A program made the position numbers and the translations under genes. This document shows positions 38,698 through 46,765 of a DNA stretch of 64,000 nt, in pieces. The number at the start of each line of letters is the position of its first letter. Within the stretch, counting starts at the first letter, position 1. Under the pieces are notes generated by a model. That model did not search any database. It was given only the letters and a program-made list of their open reading frames with translations, and had not been told where the DNA came from. Source of the stretch: Pelagomonas calceolata (lineage: Eukaryota; Sar; Pelagophyceae; Pelagomonadales; Pelagomonadaceae); contig CAKKNE010000001.1 of NCBI GenBank assembly GCA_918797485.1, positions 2,046,001 through 2,110,000 of the forward strand, written 5' to 3'.

Positions 38698-40058
38698 TCA
38701 CGTGATTGCGTCGAACTGGAACACCTCGTCGAGGATGATCCAGTCCCGGAGCCCGACGTAGAAGAGCGTCCGGAGCGGGATGGACGCCGCCACGACGACT
38801 CCTGTGTACGCGACGCGCAGCGCGGCGCCCGAGAAGAGCGAGCCCTCCGCCGCGACCTCCGCCAGCGTCGCCGCGAGCGCGGGCGGGCCCGATTCCGCGG
38901 CGCCGGGCGCGGTCCGGAGCAGGACGCGCGTCCGCGCGACGTCGAGCGGCGTCGTGAGGAGCGCCGCGACGACCGCGACCGCGACGGTCCGCGCCGTCGC
39001 GTCGAGGACGCCGCCTTTCGTGGGCGTGGTCGCGTCGAGCGCCGCGAGACCCAGGATCCGCAGCAGGCTGTACGGCAGCTCGGCCGCGAAGAGCGTCGGC
39101 CAGCGCCGGAAGCCGACGGCCGCCGCCTCGGCAGTCGTTGTGGCGACCTCCTCGCCGCGCCGCCGGACCTGAGCGCGCGTCGCGAGCACGTCGGCCGGCG
39201 CGCGGACCACGAGCGCCGCCGCCGACGCGGCCGACGCCGAGAGCAGGGCCAGCGCGAGCGGCGGCGGCGCCAGGGGCGCGAGGACCCGCCGCGAGACTTC
39301 GCGCGCGGCGTAGTACGTCGCGGCCGCGGCTGCGCGGGGCACGGAACTGTTGTATTGATGGTGTGGGGCGCGACGCCATCGACGTCGCCTCGACGGCGTG
39401 GAGCGGTACGCCATCGACGCGGCGTCGCCTCGACGGCGCGGAGCGGTACGCCATCGACGTGGTAAAGCGGTACGCCATCGACGCGACCCCAAAAACAGGA
39501 CGCCGAGCGCGCGCGCGCGGCCGCGGACACGGACGGCACGAGGCCCGCGTAGAGGTCCTTCACTTCCCGCGGCTCGATGATGCCGTTGCCGTCGGCGTCG
39601 ATCAACGCGAGCGGGCCCGTGCCCGGGCGCGCCTGTGCCCGCGACTTGAGCGTCGCGAGCGGGTGCAGCGCGGCGACGCGCGCGATCTCCGTCGTGCCTC
39701 CCGCGACGACCGCGGCCAGCGCGAGCTCCGCTTCTGAGACGCGGCGCTCGACGAGACGCGGCGGCCTCAGTGACTTGGGGTAGCCCGCGGGCAGCTGGAT
39801 CTCGCGGAGCTCGTCGCCCGTCTTCGGGTCTATTACGACCTCGGTCAGTAGGTCCTGACGGCGGACAACGACCTTGTTTTTTGCTAGCGCTTCGGTGACG
39901 TTGGTTTTTGGTGGTGGTACCGCGTTCGCGGCCGCAGCGATGATGCCGATGGCGCTGCCGCAGCCGAGGATGTTGCGGCGCGTTTGTCGTGCGCGTGGTG
40001 ATGCGTCGAGCGGTGCGGCTCGGGGCGCGGCGGTGCTGATGAGGAGGAGTCTGAGCAT
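38698..40058 (-). CDS. mitochondrial-carrier-family protein with EF-hand-like loop, probably plastid or mitochondrial membrane
   Basis: From ATG 40058 a leader (LRLLLISTAAPRAAPLDAS, RRNILGCGSAIGIIAAAANA) resembles an organelle-targeting sequence. Carrier repeats follow with P-x-(D/A)-x-x-(K/R)-x-R signatures: HPLATLKSRAQ, VRAPADVLATRAQ, TTPLDVARTRVL. Between repeat one and two sits DADGNGIIEPREV, a single EF-hand-like calcium loop. Six-helix carrier structure fits the hydrophobic pattern. Substrate unknown. One intron, 39501-39347, carries tandem introner units. Stop TGA at 38698. Confidence 0.75.
39347..39501 (-). repeat. tandem introner units in the carrier intron (155 nt)
   Basis: Starts GTCCTGTTTTTGGGG and ends TACAACAG. 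On the plus strand the unit GCGGTACGCCATCGACG repeats three times with short spacers, next to a fourth GACGCCATCGACG. Confidence 0.85.
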
Positions 40059-40348
40059 GTGGCGTGGTGCTCGTTGTGAGGCGTTACGTGTTTTTTGCAG
40101 CGCGCATGGTACCGGTGCGCCACTATGCGTTTTTTGCGTTTTTCTCCGCCTGAAGGCGCTCGTTTTGCAGCCGGCTTCGCGAGGTGCGGCTCTGAGCTTC
40201 CTATTTTGCGTTTTTGCGAGTTTTGGCCGCGAAGGCCGCAGCTTTATCTCCGCTGCACGGGTCAAATCATAACAAAAAAGGTCAAACACAGATCACGGGT
40301 TTTTCTTAGCGCTAATAAATATAGAAAAAAAAAACATCTTTGCCGGTT
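40059..40348. other. 5' flank of the carrier gene and of the permuted tRNA
   Basis: 290 bp. Ends with an A-rich stretch and a TATA-like AATAAATATAG at about 40314-40324, just before the tRNA-Cys 3' half. Confidence 0.45.
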
Positions 40349-40428
40349 TTCGAGTGGTCATCAGTTCGATCCTGGTTTCGTCCTTATCTATGGACGAATA
40401 GCTCAGTGGCAGAGCGCTCGATTGCAGG
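40349..40428 (+). tRNA. permuted tRNA-Cys(GCA): 3' half precedes 5' half
   Basis: 3' half, 40349-40384: anticodon-stem strand TCGAG, variable TGGTC, T-stem ATCAG, loop TTCGATC, T-stem CTGGT, acceptor TTCGTCC, discriminator T73. Spacer TATCTAT (40385-40391). 5' half, 40392-40427: acceptor GGACGAA, TA, D-stem GCTC, loop AGTGGCA, GAGC, G, anticodon stem CTCGA, loop TTGCAG. All stems pair: acceptor 7/7, D 4/4, anticodon 5/5, T 5/5 with one G-T. U73 is the discriminator expected for tRNA-Cys, and T8, A14, G18-G19, T33 and T54-T55-C56 are present. A T-rich run (40430-40446) follows, as for Pol III termination. Promoter box B lies before box A. The mature product would be 72 nt and needs circular-intermediate processing. 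Confidence 0.92.
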
Positions 40429-40824
40429 CTTTTTTTTTGCTTTTTTGGACACTACTGGACTAGACTATCATCCTGAACGAGTTTGGCTAACGTACAGTAC
40501 CCTTGGTATGTGACAAGAGCCACCGACGACGACGCCACCGCCGGAAACGCAAAAGAAGGACAGCCAAACCACCACAAACCCAAACAACGAGCTGAAGCCA
40601 GACCCTCGTGAGGTGCAGATTGATGCTACAGAACAAACTGGCCCATAAAAGTTTGGGAAAATGTTGAACCGCCCGCGCGTGTCTCCGACCATATTTCCTA
40701 CAGGTACATCGACGACATCGACGCCCCCAAGGTCGCTCATTTGTTTTGTCAAGTGGGCAAGTAGCTACTGAAAAGAGGCACACGCTACTCTAGAGCTAGA
40801 CACCGCGCATGCTGAATCATGAAA
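40429..40824. other. spacer after the permuted tRNA
   Basis: Begins with two T-runs likely to end Pol III transcription. The rest shows only weak open frames on the minus strand and no recognisable feature. Confidence 0.45.
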
Positions 40825-40846
40825 TTAGTGTGTTACGGCCGCTAGC
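40825..40846. promoter_or_regulatory. GCTAG palindrome, copy H
   Basis: TTAGTGTGTTACGGCCGCTAGC, diverged left arm. It is 163 bp before ATG 41009. Confidence 0.5.
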
Positions 40847-40892
40847 CTTGGGCTTTGCGGCGCGATGCGGGCGTGATGCGGGCGCACTGGCA

Positions 40893-41983
40893 CGGATAGA
40901 TCAAGCAATAATTCATAAAATTTGCCGTGTGCCCGCTGCCGCCGACTCCGGCATTTATAGCGGTGTCTCTGATGGCTGTGCCAGCAAGCAGGGCGACCAG
41001 TGCTGCCTATGCCTGACTGGAAAGATCGCTCGAACCCCCAGTTCGGCCGGCGGCGCGCTGTCGCCAGGCGGCAGGGCGCGGTCCGGGTCCGGCCGGGAAG
41101 CGCGTGGCAGCGGGCCCTCGCGGTCGCGCGCGAGCGTCAGCCGCGGCACTTTGCCGAGTGGCAAGCATCGGATGCAGTGTGCCACCGCCGCCGCGCCATC
41201 GACTTCCGCGCGCTCCCGCGGTCGTGCGATCCGCTTTGGGGCGGCGGCGTGCCGCCGATCCGGGCCTGGCGGAAGCGGCGCCAGATCGAGAACGTCCTGG
41301 GGCCGCTCGCAGAGCTGACGGCGCTATTGAAGCGACCGGCGCACATCGTCGACTTCTGTGCCTCGAGCGGCCACGTCGCGCTGCCGGCCGCCGCCGTGCT
41401 GAAGGGCGTCACCGTCGAGATCAACGACCTGCGCGAGCGGCCGATCGACATCGCGCGCGAACGCATCGCCGCGCTGCCCCCGGCCCTGCGCGCTCGTTGC
41501 ACGGCCCGCGTCGGTTCCACGGAGACCCATACTGGGCCCTTCGACATCGGCGTGGCGCTCCACGCCTGCGGCGTGGCGACGGACGTGGTGCTGGAGACCT
41601 GCCTGCGCCGCCGCGCGGCCTTCGTGCTCGTCCCGTGCTGCGTCGGCCGGCTCGCGCAGCGGGCGAACAGAGGGCGGAACGCCCGGTCGAGTCTGCCGAA
41701 GACGGAGGCCTTCGCCGCGTGTTTCGATTTACCCAAGTCGGCGGTCTGGCGCGGGGCCCTCAGCTCGGACGAGGCCAAGGCGCTCGCGCGCGCGGGCGAC
41801 TGCACGGCCCGCGACAAGTTGACGGCGGACGACCGGGAGCGTCGCGCCTGCAAGACGGTGATCGACGGCGACCGCCTCGCGCTCGCCGCGGAGCGCGGCT
41901 ACACGGTCTCGCACTTTTTGATGCGCCCGTTCGGCATCACGCCGAAGAACGATGTTATTGTAGGGTACCCGTCCGAGTGGAGG
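40893..41983 (+). repeat. arm 1 of a 1.1-kb inverted duplication
   Basis: Nearly identical to the reverse complement of 45604-46684, including about 110 bp upstream with GGCATTTATAGCGGT (TATA-like). The match stops just after the codon for the shared GYPSEW. Confidence 0.9.
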
Positions 41984-43360: not shown

Positions 43361-43478
43361 CTGTAATTTCACCAACACGCCCCGGGCACGGCGACGACGA
43401 CGCACGCTTCTACGACCGGCTGTAATTTCACCAACACGCCCCGGGCACGGCGACGACGACGCACGCTTCTACGACCGG
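43361..43478. repeat. 59-bp unit in perfect tandem duplication
   Basis: Unit begins CTGTAATTTCACCAACACGC and ends TTCTACGACCGG; copies at 43361-43419 and 43420-43478 look identical. Confidence 0.9.
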
Positions 43479-43492
43479 CAGCAAGCTTACGT

Positions 43493-45587: not shown

Positions 45588-46571
45588 TTAAGCTCTACAC
45601 CACTCAGACGGGTACCCAACGATGACGTCGTTCTTCGGCGTGATGCCGAAGGGGCGCATCACGAAGTGCGAGACCGTGTAGCCCCGCTCCGCTGCGAGCG
45701 CGAGGCGGTCGCCGTCGATCACCGTCTTGCAGGCGCGCCGCTCCCGGTCGTCCGCCGTCAACTGGTCGCGGGCCGTGCAGTCGCCCGCGCGCGCGAGCGC
45801 CTTGGCCTCGTCCGAGCTGAGGGCCCCGCGCCAGACCGCCGACTTGGGTAAATCGAAACAAGCGGCGAAGGCCTCCGTCTTCGGCAGGCTCGACCGGGCG
45901 TTCCGCCCTCTGTTCGCCCGCTGCGCGAGCCGGCCGACGCAGCACGGGACGAGCACGAAGGCCGCGCGGCGGCGCAGGCAGGTCTCCAGCACCACGTCCG
46001 TCGCCACGCCGCAGGCGTGGAGCGCCACGCCGATGTCGAAGGGCCCAGTATGGCTCTCCGTGGAACCGACGCGGGCCGTGCAGCGAGCGCGCAGGGCCGG
46101 GGGCAGCGCGGCGATGCGTTCGCGCGCGATGTCGATCGGCCGCTCGCGCAGATCGTTGATCTCGACGGTGACGCCCTTCAGCACGGCGGCGGCCGGCAGC
46201 GCGACGTGGCCGCTCGACGCGCAGAAGTCGACGATGTGCGCCGGTCGCTTCAATAGCGCCGTCAGCTCCGCGAGTGGCCCCAGGACGTTCTCGATCTGGC
46301 GCCGCTTCCGCCAGGCCCGGATCGGCGGCACGCCGCCGCCCCAAAGCGGATCGCACGACCGCGGGAGCGCGCGGAAGTCGATGGCGCGGCGGCGGTGGCA
46401 CACTGCATCCGATGCTTGCCACTCGTCAAAGTGCCGCGGCCGACGCTCGCGCGCGACCGCGAGGGCCCGCTGCCACGCACTTGCCGGCCGGACCCGGACC
46501 GCGCCCTGCCGCCTGGCGACAGCGCGCCGCCGGCCGAACTGGGGGTTCGAGCGATCCTTCCAGTCAGGCAT
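45588..46571 (-). CDS. methyltransferase-like protein (GSTCD/METTL25 type), copy 2
   Basis: Almost identical to copy 1 on the opposite strand; a handful of substitutions (for instance RHFDEWQ versus RHFAEWQ, STESHTG versus STETHTG, FVMRPF versus FLMRPF). Catalytic-fold motifs DFCASSGHVALP, HACGVATD and VPCCVG are intact, so both copies may be active. ATG 46571. The C-terminus is WCRA because the duplication ends there. The upstream TATA-like element is conserved too, but the GCTAG palindrome region differs (copy H versus copy I). Confidence 0.8.
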   Translation of the reverse strand: MPDWKDRSNPQFGRRRAVARRQGAVRVRPASAWQRALAVARERRPRHFDEWQASDAVCHRRRAIDFRALPRSCDPLWGGGVPPIRAWRKRRQIENVLGPLAELTALLKRPAHIVDFCASSGHVALPAAAVLKGVTVEINDLRERPIDIARERIAALPPALRARCTARVGSTESHTGPFDIGVALHACGVATDVVLETCLRRRAAFVLVPCCVGRLAQRANRGRNARSSLPKTEAFAACFDLPKSAVWRGALSSDEAKALARAGDCTARDQLTADDRERRACKTVIDGDRLALAAERGYTVSHFVMRPFGITPKNDVIVGYPSEWCRA

Positions 46572-46684
46572 AGGCAGCAGTGGTCGCCCTGCTTGCTGGC
46601 ACAGCCGCCCCCAGAGACCGCTATAAATGCCGGCGTCGGCGGCAGCTGGCAGACGGCATATTTATGAGTGATTGATTTGATCTA
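45604..46684 (-). repeat. arm 2 of a 1.1-kb inverted duplication
   Basis: Reverse complement of 40893-41983 with few differences; encloses the 3.6 kb between. Confidence 0.9.
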
Positions 46685-46742
46685 TCAGTACCAGTGCGCG
46701 CCCGAAATCACGCCCTCCCTCCCGCCAAGCCCTCGCAACCGC

Positions 46743-46765
46743 GCTAGCGGAAGTAAGACACTAGC
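46743..46765. promoter_or_regulatory. GCTAG palindrome, copy I
   Basis: GCTAGCGGAAGTAAGACAC then TAGC. Between divergent genes: 172 bp from ATG 46571 and 207 bp from ATG 46972. Confidence 0.6.

What the first reader, a model, noticed from the sequence alone, without database searches (positions are those of the whole stretch)
40349..40428. Permuted tRNA-Cys gene
Seen: a full tRNA whose 3' half (40349-40384) comes before its 5' half (40392-40427), separated by TATCTAT. All four stems pair across the permutation, the anticodon is GCA and base 73 is T, the identity base of tRNA-Cys. A T-run follows the 5' half. The outer flanks GCC (40342-40344) and GGC (40427-40429) can pair and extend the anticodon stem, as the bulge-helix-bulge of permuted precursors does. 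Known: such genes exist in red algae, some green picoalgae, a nucleomorph and an archaeon, and mature through a circular intermediate. I know of none in a stramenopile, if that is what this is.
Basis: partly seen in the sequence, partly recalled or inferred. Interest (0 to 1): 0.96.

Follow-up and report, generated by a model that had tools for sequence, protein, structure and literature searches.

The report
Back-to-front tRNA-Cys gene in alga
This stretch carries a transfer-RNA gene for cysteine whose two halves sit in swapped order, a rare arrangement known mainly from a few tiny red and green algae, here in the nucleus of what is probably an unrelated alga of another lineage.

Summary
The 3' half of a tRNA-Cys(GCA) (40349-40384) lies upstream of its 5' half (40392-40427), with TATCTAT between. 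Rejoined, they form a full cloverleaf: 21 of 21 stem pairs, anticodon GCA, U73; ARAGORN calls tRNA-Cys. A scan for this architecture gave one 21/21 hit in the window and none at 21/21 in 4914 random windows. ARAGORN finds no ordinary nuclear-type tRNA in the window. A TATA-like site and an A-run precede the gene; T9 follows it.

The best reading is a working type II (37/38) permuted tRNA-Cys gene: Pol III transcript, splicing-endonuclease cuts, circular intermediate, RNase P/tRNase Z, CCA addition. Expression was not testable.

The kind is known: the same tRNA and junction type are listed for Ostreococcus lucimarinus, O. tauri and Micromonas pusilla. What may be new is the host. Presequences that look like secondary-plastid targeting, about 65% GC and introner-like repeats point to a secondary-plastid alga, most likely a pelagophyte. 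I found no report of permuted tRNA genes in stramenopiles in the open-access library. The host is inferred, not proven.

The parts
40314..40323 (+). TATA-like AATAAATATA, candidate upstream Pol III promoter element, ending 25 nt before the 3' half
   Evidence: Sequence. The stretch 40290-40348 is 67.8% AT; only 0.29% of equal-length stretches of the window are as AT-rich. Function inferred by analogy with C. merolae as described in PMC3978253.
40325..40334 (+). A10 run between the TATA-like site and the gene; promoter or leader DNA
   Evidence: One of 2 A-runs of 9 or more on the + strand of the window.
40342..40348 (+). Leader just before the 3' half (GCCGGTT): offers positions -3, -4, -5 to pair with U32, U33, G34; also holds the GCC of the alternative GCC/GGC stem
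   Evidence: Pairs counted: U.G, U.G, G-C, then a C/C mismatch.
40349..40384 (+). 3' half of tRNA-Cys: U38, anticodon stem 39-43 (40350-40354), variable loop (40355-40359), T arm (40360-40376), acceptor 3' strand (40377-40383), discriminator U73 (40384)
40385..40391 (+). Intervening sequence TATCTAT joining tRNA 3' end to tRNA 5' end; no CCA encoded; expected to be removed from the circular intermediate
   Evidence: removal step inferred from PMC3978253 section 6.
40392..40427 (+). 5' half of tRNA-Cys: acceptor 5' strand (40392-40398), U8 A9, D arm (40401-40415), anticodon stem 27-31 (40417-40421), U32 U33, anticodon GCA (40424-40426), G37 (40427)
40430..40438 (+). T9 run, candidate Pol III terminator
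   Evidence: One of only 2 T-runs of 9 or more on the + strand of the window.

Best explanation
This is an intact, probably working, type II circularly permuted nuclear tRNA-Cys(GCA) gene. Shown: the gene order, the complete cloverleaf after rejoining, the Cys identity bases, and the flanking TATA-like and T9 sequences. Inferred: RNA polymerase III transcribes leader, 3' half, TATCTAT, 5' half and trailer as one RNA. The tRNA splicing endonuclease cuts after G37 and before U38, and a tRNA ligase closes the RNA into a 79-nt circle. RNase P and tRNase Z then remove TATCTAT, and CCA is added to the 72-nt tRNA. The host is inferred to be a secondary-plastid alga, most likely a pelagophyte stramenopile.
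For: 21/21 stem pairs and Cys identity on rejoining. 0 of 4914 random windows reach 21/21. No ordinary nuclear-type tRNA in the window and no second copy of either half. TATA-like site upstream, T9 downstream, as in characterised permuted genes (PMC3978253 sections 4 and 5). G37, the base expected in tRNA-Cys (recalled), comes from the 5' half, which fits a 37/38 junction, the usual green-algal type. A position 32 with -3 pair, which eukaryotic endonucleases use (recalled), is possible as U.G and leaves a 3-nt 3' bulge. The neighbours include eukaryotic nuclear genes (UTP20, SNF2/ISWI-like, GRIP).
Against: No RNA data. The central helix of the bulge-helix-bulge has only 3 of 4 pairs, two of them G-U, and adding it to the cloverleaf costs energy (-20.6 against -22.5 kcal/mol), while the GCC/GGC pairing gains (-28.5); the minimum, -35.1, uses the latter, which involves G37. 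The predicted minimum of the mature tRNA is also not the textbook cloverleaf (-26.7 against -22.0, with a shorter D stem and longer anticodon stem). The exact junction is not fixed by sequence: 3 joins give a tRNA-Cys. A TTTT run at 40347-40350 could act as a weak Pol III stop in species where four T suffice (recalled). No relative turned up in the reachable collections, so there is no test by conservation. Whether an ordinary tRNA-Cys exists is unknown.
Confidence: 0.85

Rival explanations
1. Relic of a tandem tRNA-Cys duplication: the two inner halves of neighbouring genes remain by chance and the locus is a dead pseudogene.
For: Tandem tRNA genes do produce this geometry: in 12 of 19 distinct scan hits in the 120 control loci, ordinary tRNAs were called over both halves. 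Tandem duplication is also a plausible route by which permuted genes arise.
Against: No trace of the outer halves: no ordinary nuclear-type tRNA called in the window and no second copy of either half. No decay: 21/21 pairs and the consensus bases kept. The terminator-like T-run directly follows the 5' half.
Confidence: 0.08
2. Y-RNA-like (YrlA-type) RNA: a permuted-tRNA mimic that binds Ro60-type proteins rather than a tRNA.
For: The only Rfam match at E up to 1 is YrlA, full length, 33.7 bits, E 6.4e-06. The A10 and T9 runs could pair into an outer stem.
Against: Far below the family's gathering score of 69. Two of two tandem pairs of ordinary tRNAs tested also match YrlA across their junction, partially, at 27.8 and 24.8 bits, while a YrlA-like RNA in an IMG/VR contig scores 44.7. 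YrlA is a bacterial family (recalled). A full anticodon arm with GCA, G37 and U73 is not needed in a mimic.
Confidence: 0.04
3. Assembly or library artefact (for example a circularised and recopied tRNA fragment joined into a contig).
For: Only one assembled sequence is available and no reads were seen.
Against: The halves are separated by a heptamer and flanked by promoter- and terminator-like sequences between two divergent genes (first ATG at 40058 on - and 41009 on +). No intact copy is in the window that could have been scrambled.
Confidence: 0.03
4. The host is a green picoalga such as a Micromonas relative, so the gene is simply one more of the described green-algal tRNA-Cys genes. (This rival concerns the host and can hold together with the best explanation of the gene.)
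For: M. pusilla has 65% GC, introners and a permuted tRNA-Cys(GCA) at 37/38.
Against: Proteins starting with a signal-peptide-like stretch followed by a twin-arginine hydrophobic stretch, judged by eye and hydropathy: two clear (18927 +, 61864 -) and one weaker (40058 -); this is the layout of secondary-plastid targeting (recalled). The M. pusilla gene has a 12-bp intervening sequence, this one 7 as I count.
Confidence: 0.12

Closest known systems
Permuted nuclear tRNA-Cys(GCA), type II, of Ostreococcus lucimarinus, O. tauri and Micromonas pusilla (Maruyama et al. 2010; seen as Table 1 of review PMC3978253; the original paper is not held)
   Same: Same amino acid, anticodon and half order; the 37/38 junction as placed here by inference; no additional intron.
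   Different: Intervening sequence 7 bp against 26, 38 and 12 bp. Host probably a secondary-plastid alga rather than a prasinophyte. Sequences could not be compared.
Permuted tRNA genes of Cyanidioschyzon merolae (Soma et al. 2007; via PMC3978253)
   Same: 3' half first, short intervening sequence without CCA, upstream TATA-like site, downstream T-stretch; two tRNA-Gly(CCC) genes also have 7 bp between the halves.
   Different: C. merolae uses several junction positions and other tRNAs; no permuted tRNA-Cys is listed there.
Permuted tRNA-Ser genes of chlorarachniophyte nucleomorphs (B. natans in PMC3978253; Amorphochlora amoebiformis in passages of PMC4494063)
   Same: Permuted genes (type II in B. 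natans) in a lineage with a secondary plastid.
   Different: They lie in the remnant nucleus of a green endosymbiont; here the neighbours look like ordinary host nuclear genes.
YrlA, Y RNA-like (RF02553)
   Same: Permuted-tRNA-like geometry; sub-threshold match of 33.7 bits.
   Different: Bacterial (recalled); gathering score 69 not reached.

Membership tests
Circularly permuted tRNA gene, type II | 3' half encoded upstream of 5' half with a short intervening sequence, no intact tRNA there | tested here: met
Circularly permuted tRNA gene, type II | Rejoined halves give a cloverleaf with eukaryotic consensus bases (U8, R15:Y48, G18G19, U33, U54U55C56) | tested here: met
   Stems, tRNA-Cys by ARAGORN; bases read from the sequence.
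Circularly permuted tRNA gene, type II | Junction at 37/38 | tested here: inconclusive
   40427|40349 (G37|U38) fits best, but ARAGORN also accepts 40426|40348 and 40428|40350; only RNA ends can settle it.
Circularly permuted tRNA gene, type II | Bulge-helix-bulge (hBH) at the junction | tested here: inconclusive
   Outer helix 5/5, 3-nt 3' bulge possible, central helix 3 of 4 pairs with two G-U, energetically unfavourable.
Circularly permuted tRNA gene, type II | Upstream TATA-like sequence within 50 bp and downstream T-stretch, no termination signal between the halves | tested here: met
   AATAAATATA 40314-40323 and T9 40430-40438; no run of 4 or more T in the intervening sequence. A TTTT at 40347-40350 spans the start of the 3' half.
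Circularly permuted tRNA gene, type II | CCA not encoded (eukaryotic) | tested here: met
   U73 is followed by TATCTAT.
Circularly permuted tRNA gene, type II | Circular RNA intermediate and mature aminoacylated tRNA | not testable with these tools
   No RNA data available.
YrlA (RF02553) | Covariance-model score at or above gathering (69) | tested here: not met
   33.7 bits; no match at gathering threshold.
Tandem ordinary tRNA genes | Complete tRNAs overlapping both halves | tested here: not met
   0 nuclear-type tRNAs in the window, introns up to 300 allowed.
Pelagophyte (stramenopile) nuclear genome | Phylogenetic placement by marker genes | not tested
   I had no algal reference proteins to compare with; host inferred from presequences, GC and introner-like repeats only.

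The most novel reading that the evidence does not exclude
A stramenopile (pelagophyte) nucleus makes its tRNA-Cys(GCA), perhaps its only one, from a permuted gene through a circular RNA. That would mean permuted tRNA genes arose or were transferred outside red algae, green algae and green-derived nucleomorphs among eukaryotes, and that the same tRNA was permuted at the same junction as in prasinophytes, either by convergence or by gene transfer.
Probability: 0.5. Interest if true: 0.72.

Novelty: new member of a known kind. Interest (0 to 1): 0.52.

Why it matters
Permuted tRNA genes test how freely tRNA genes can be rearranged when the splicing endonuclease and ligase are present. Finding the same tRNA permuted at the same place in an unrelated alga would allow a direct test of convergence against gene transfer. 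It also warns that a standard tRNA finder can miss such a gene altogether: ARAGORN found nothing here.

Tried and rejected
Ordinary tRNA finding, introns allowed: 0 tRNAs. A metazoan-mitochondrial mode gave 4 low-scoring calls elsewhere in the window, taken as noise. Own-genome search: no genome held. Exact 21-mer of the T arm and acceptor: 0 matches in IMG/VR and 0 in the GTDB contigs. A relaxed permuted tRNA-Cys pattern: 0 in both; the same pattern matches the window once, so it is well formed. UTP20 as a bait in IMG/VR: 308 stretches matched a pattern, none confirmed.

It served as a real-sequence control. The scan printed 24 hit rows, overlapping variants included; I checked 19 distinct hit regions for overlap with ordinary tRNAs. 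In 12 of 19, ARAGORN called tRNAs over both halves, in 1 over the 3' half only, in 6 over neither; a rerun on the six whole loci again found none overlapping. One of the six (L052) lies at the edge of its locus, so its outer half could be cut off. One of the six was tested with Rfam at relaxed threshold and is a sub-threshold YrlA match (L058, 44.7 bits); the other five were run at gathering threshold only and show no match there. So the architecture alone is not proof where tRNA arrays or YrlA-like RNAs exist; this is a caution against resting on the random-window test.

The solved-structure searches did not help place the host. A six-term paper search returned 3,268 papers ranked by other terms and was uninformative; one search found one unrelated paper. 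Maruyama 2010 and Huff 2016 are not held.

Full report
WHAT IS THERE. The 3' half runs TTCGAG...TCCT (40349-40384), then TATCTAT, then the 5' half GGACGAA...TTGCAG (40392-40427). Across the permutation the acceptor stem pairs 7/7, the D stem 4/4, the anticodon stem 5/5 and the T stem 5/5 (one G-U), 21 of 21 in all. ARAGORN calls the full-length rejoined halves tRNA-Cys(gca) for 3 of 5 joins tried, those that keep a 7-base anticodon loop, and leaves the 2 shorter joins undecided (one search was a first run on constructs lacking the last 3 bases). The discriminator base is U73, and U8, G15 with C48, G18G19, U33, T54T55C56 and A58 are present (read). With the join after G37 (40427) and before U38 (40349) the loop is UUGCAGU. 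A G at 37 is what eukaryotic tRNA-Cys carries (recalled), so I place the junction at 37/38; the sequence alone does not fix it.

CHANCE. A mechanical scan for this architecture (T-arm consensus, four paired stems, U8, GG in the D loop, U33, spacer 0-80) on both strands gave one hit in 64 kb, this one, at 21/21. In 4914 order-2 Markov random windows it gave 48 hits of 17 or more pairs: 32 with 17, 9 with 18, 6 with 19, 1 with 20 and 0 with 21. An earlier batch of 150 gave one hit, at 18. Real sequence can mimic the architecture. In 120 IMG/VR loci chosen for a T loop followed by an A box, 12 of 19 distinct hit regions were junctions of two ordinary tRNAs, 1 had a tRNA over the 3' half only, and 6 had none over either half. 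One of those six is a YrlA-like RNA below threshold. So I checked that no complete nuclear-type tRNA is called around our halves and that neither half has a second copy in the window. The YrlA resemblance of the window, 33.7 bits, lies a little above two junctions of ordinary tRNAs, 27.8 and 24.8 bits, below the example in an IMG/VR contig at 44.7, and well below the family's gathering score of 69.

SURROUNDINGS. The gene lies between a minus-strand gene (first ATG 40058) whose downstream part, in another frame, matches mitochondrial carriers, and a plus-strand methyltransferase gene (first ATG 41009). Upstream is a stretch as AT-rich as only 0.29% of the window, with AATAAATATA ending 25 nt before the 3' half and an A10 run. 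Downstream, T9 starts 3 nt after G37 and is one of two such T-runs on the plus strand in 64 kb. Review PMC3978253 (section 4 part 1 of 2 and sections 5, 6 and 8 read) describes this set for permuted genes of C. merolae: upstream TATA-like site, T-stretch after the 5' half, no signals between. A TTTT at 40347-40350 at the start of the 3' half is a possible weak stop and counts slightly against.

HOW IT PROBABLY WORKS. [quoted passage not shown] Here the circle would be 79 nt and the tRNA 72 nt plus CCA. None of these steps is shown for this organism.

THE JUNCTION MOTIF. In the canonical register positions 32, 33, 34 and 35 face leader positions -3 to -6: U.G, U.G, G-C and C/C, so 3 of 4 pairs, and a 3-nt 3' bulge. 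This allows the position 32 with -3 pair that eukaryotic endonucleases use (recalled), but it is weak, and adding it raises the energy (-20.6 against -22.5). But it ties up exon base G37 and so is not the standard bulge-helix-bulge. The minimum for the mature tRNA (-26.7) also departs from the textbook cloverleaf (-22.0), with a shorter D stem and a longer anticodon stem. I call the motif inconclusive; eukaryotic enzymes also measure from the tRNA body.

THE HOST. Several genes are eukaryotic (UTP20, SNF2/ISWI-like, GRIP, MIF4G with MA3). By eye and hydropathy, two predicted proteins begin with a clear signal-peptide-like stretch followed by a twin-arginine hydrophobic stretch: a DUF1499 protein (start 18927 +) and a first exon that I join by inference to a short-chain reductase (start 61864 -). 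A third, at 40058 -, is weaker: its first stretch passed an 11-residue measure (1.75) but is not among the starts listed above 1.6 by the 12-residue screen, and its link to the carrier domain crosses frames. That layered layout is typical of plastids gained by secondary endosymbiosis (recalled). GC is about 65%. A 13-mer, ACGCCATCGACGC, occurs 36 times with at most one mismatch against 0.48 expected. Copies lie in the gaps between coding stretches of the SNF2 and UTP20 genes, and related sequence lies in the MIF4G gap, as introners would. Pelagomonas calceolata has 63.6% GC, 0.45 introns per gene and an intron-length peak like Aureococcus introners; A. anophagefferens has 67.4% GC (passages of PMC9481584). 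Introners also occur in Micromonas and Chrysochromulina (passages of PMC9860276), so they do not decide. My estimates are about 0.7 for a pelagophyte, 0.88 for some secondary-plastid alga and 0.12 for a green alga. No phylogeny was made.

WHAT IS KNOWN. PMC3978253 counts 34 permuted tRNA genes from six algal species and one archaeon, among them type II tRNA-Cys(GCA) in O. lucimarinus, O. tauri and M. pusilla. Later papers add Auxenochlorella (passages of PMC12633428) and another nucleomorph (passages of PMC4494063). Of 45 held papers naming permuted tRNAs (40 listed), one also names stramenopiles; both its mentions are in reference titles. Six also name diatoms (5 listed, one being held twice). 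I looked at passages of those five, PMC12633428, PMC4090602, PMC4929541, PMC13353863 and PMC8450103; none of the passages reports a stramenopile permuted tRNA. A search with Aureococcus gave 7 papers, one of them on tRNA genes (passages), with nothing on this. Most subscription journals are not held and I did not open the other listed papers apart from those cited here, so absence is not proof.

VERDICT. A real, apparently intact member of a known kind, in a host where the kind seems unreported. Interesting for distribution and for the question of convergence or transfer; not a new mechanism.

Noticed in passing
40826-41980 and 45600-46763: Inverted duplicate, 94% identical over 1167 aligned bases, each copy holding a methyltransferase gene (Methyltransf_32 above cut-off, TRM13 just below it); the duplication stops about 400 bp short of the tRNA.
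   Followed up: partly
whole window, e.g. 1162, 1923, 35479, 39373-39484, 47936, 59453, 61626: Introner-like short repeat ACGCCATCGACGC, 36 copies with at most one mismatch against 0.48 expected; some lie in apparent introns, others in tandem clusters.
   Followed up: partly
18927 (+), 61864 (-), 40058 (-, weaker): Protein starts with a signal-peptide-like stretch followed by a twin-arginine hydrophobic stretch, suggesting secondary-plastid thylakoid targeting.
   Followed up: partly
L058:9285-9394 and L026:5332-5407: IMG/VR contigs with a permuted-tRNA-shaped RNA of 21/21 pairs; L058 matches YrlA at 44.7 bits, below the gathering score; L026 looks alike but was run at gathering threshold only. 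Such RNAs may be missed by the Rfam threshold.
   Followed up: partly
L046:3859-3939, L092:4231-4328, L106:2528-2602 (-), L052:12358-12495 (-, at locus edge): Further permuted-tRNA-like hits in IMG/VR contigs with no ordinary tRNA called over either half; no gathering-score Rfam match there; not examined further.
   Followed up: no
43361-43479: A 59-bp unit repeated twice in tandem without mismatch.
   Followed up: no
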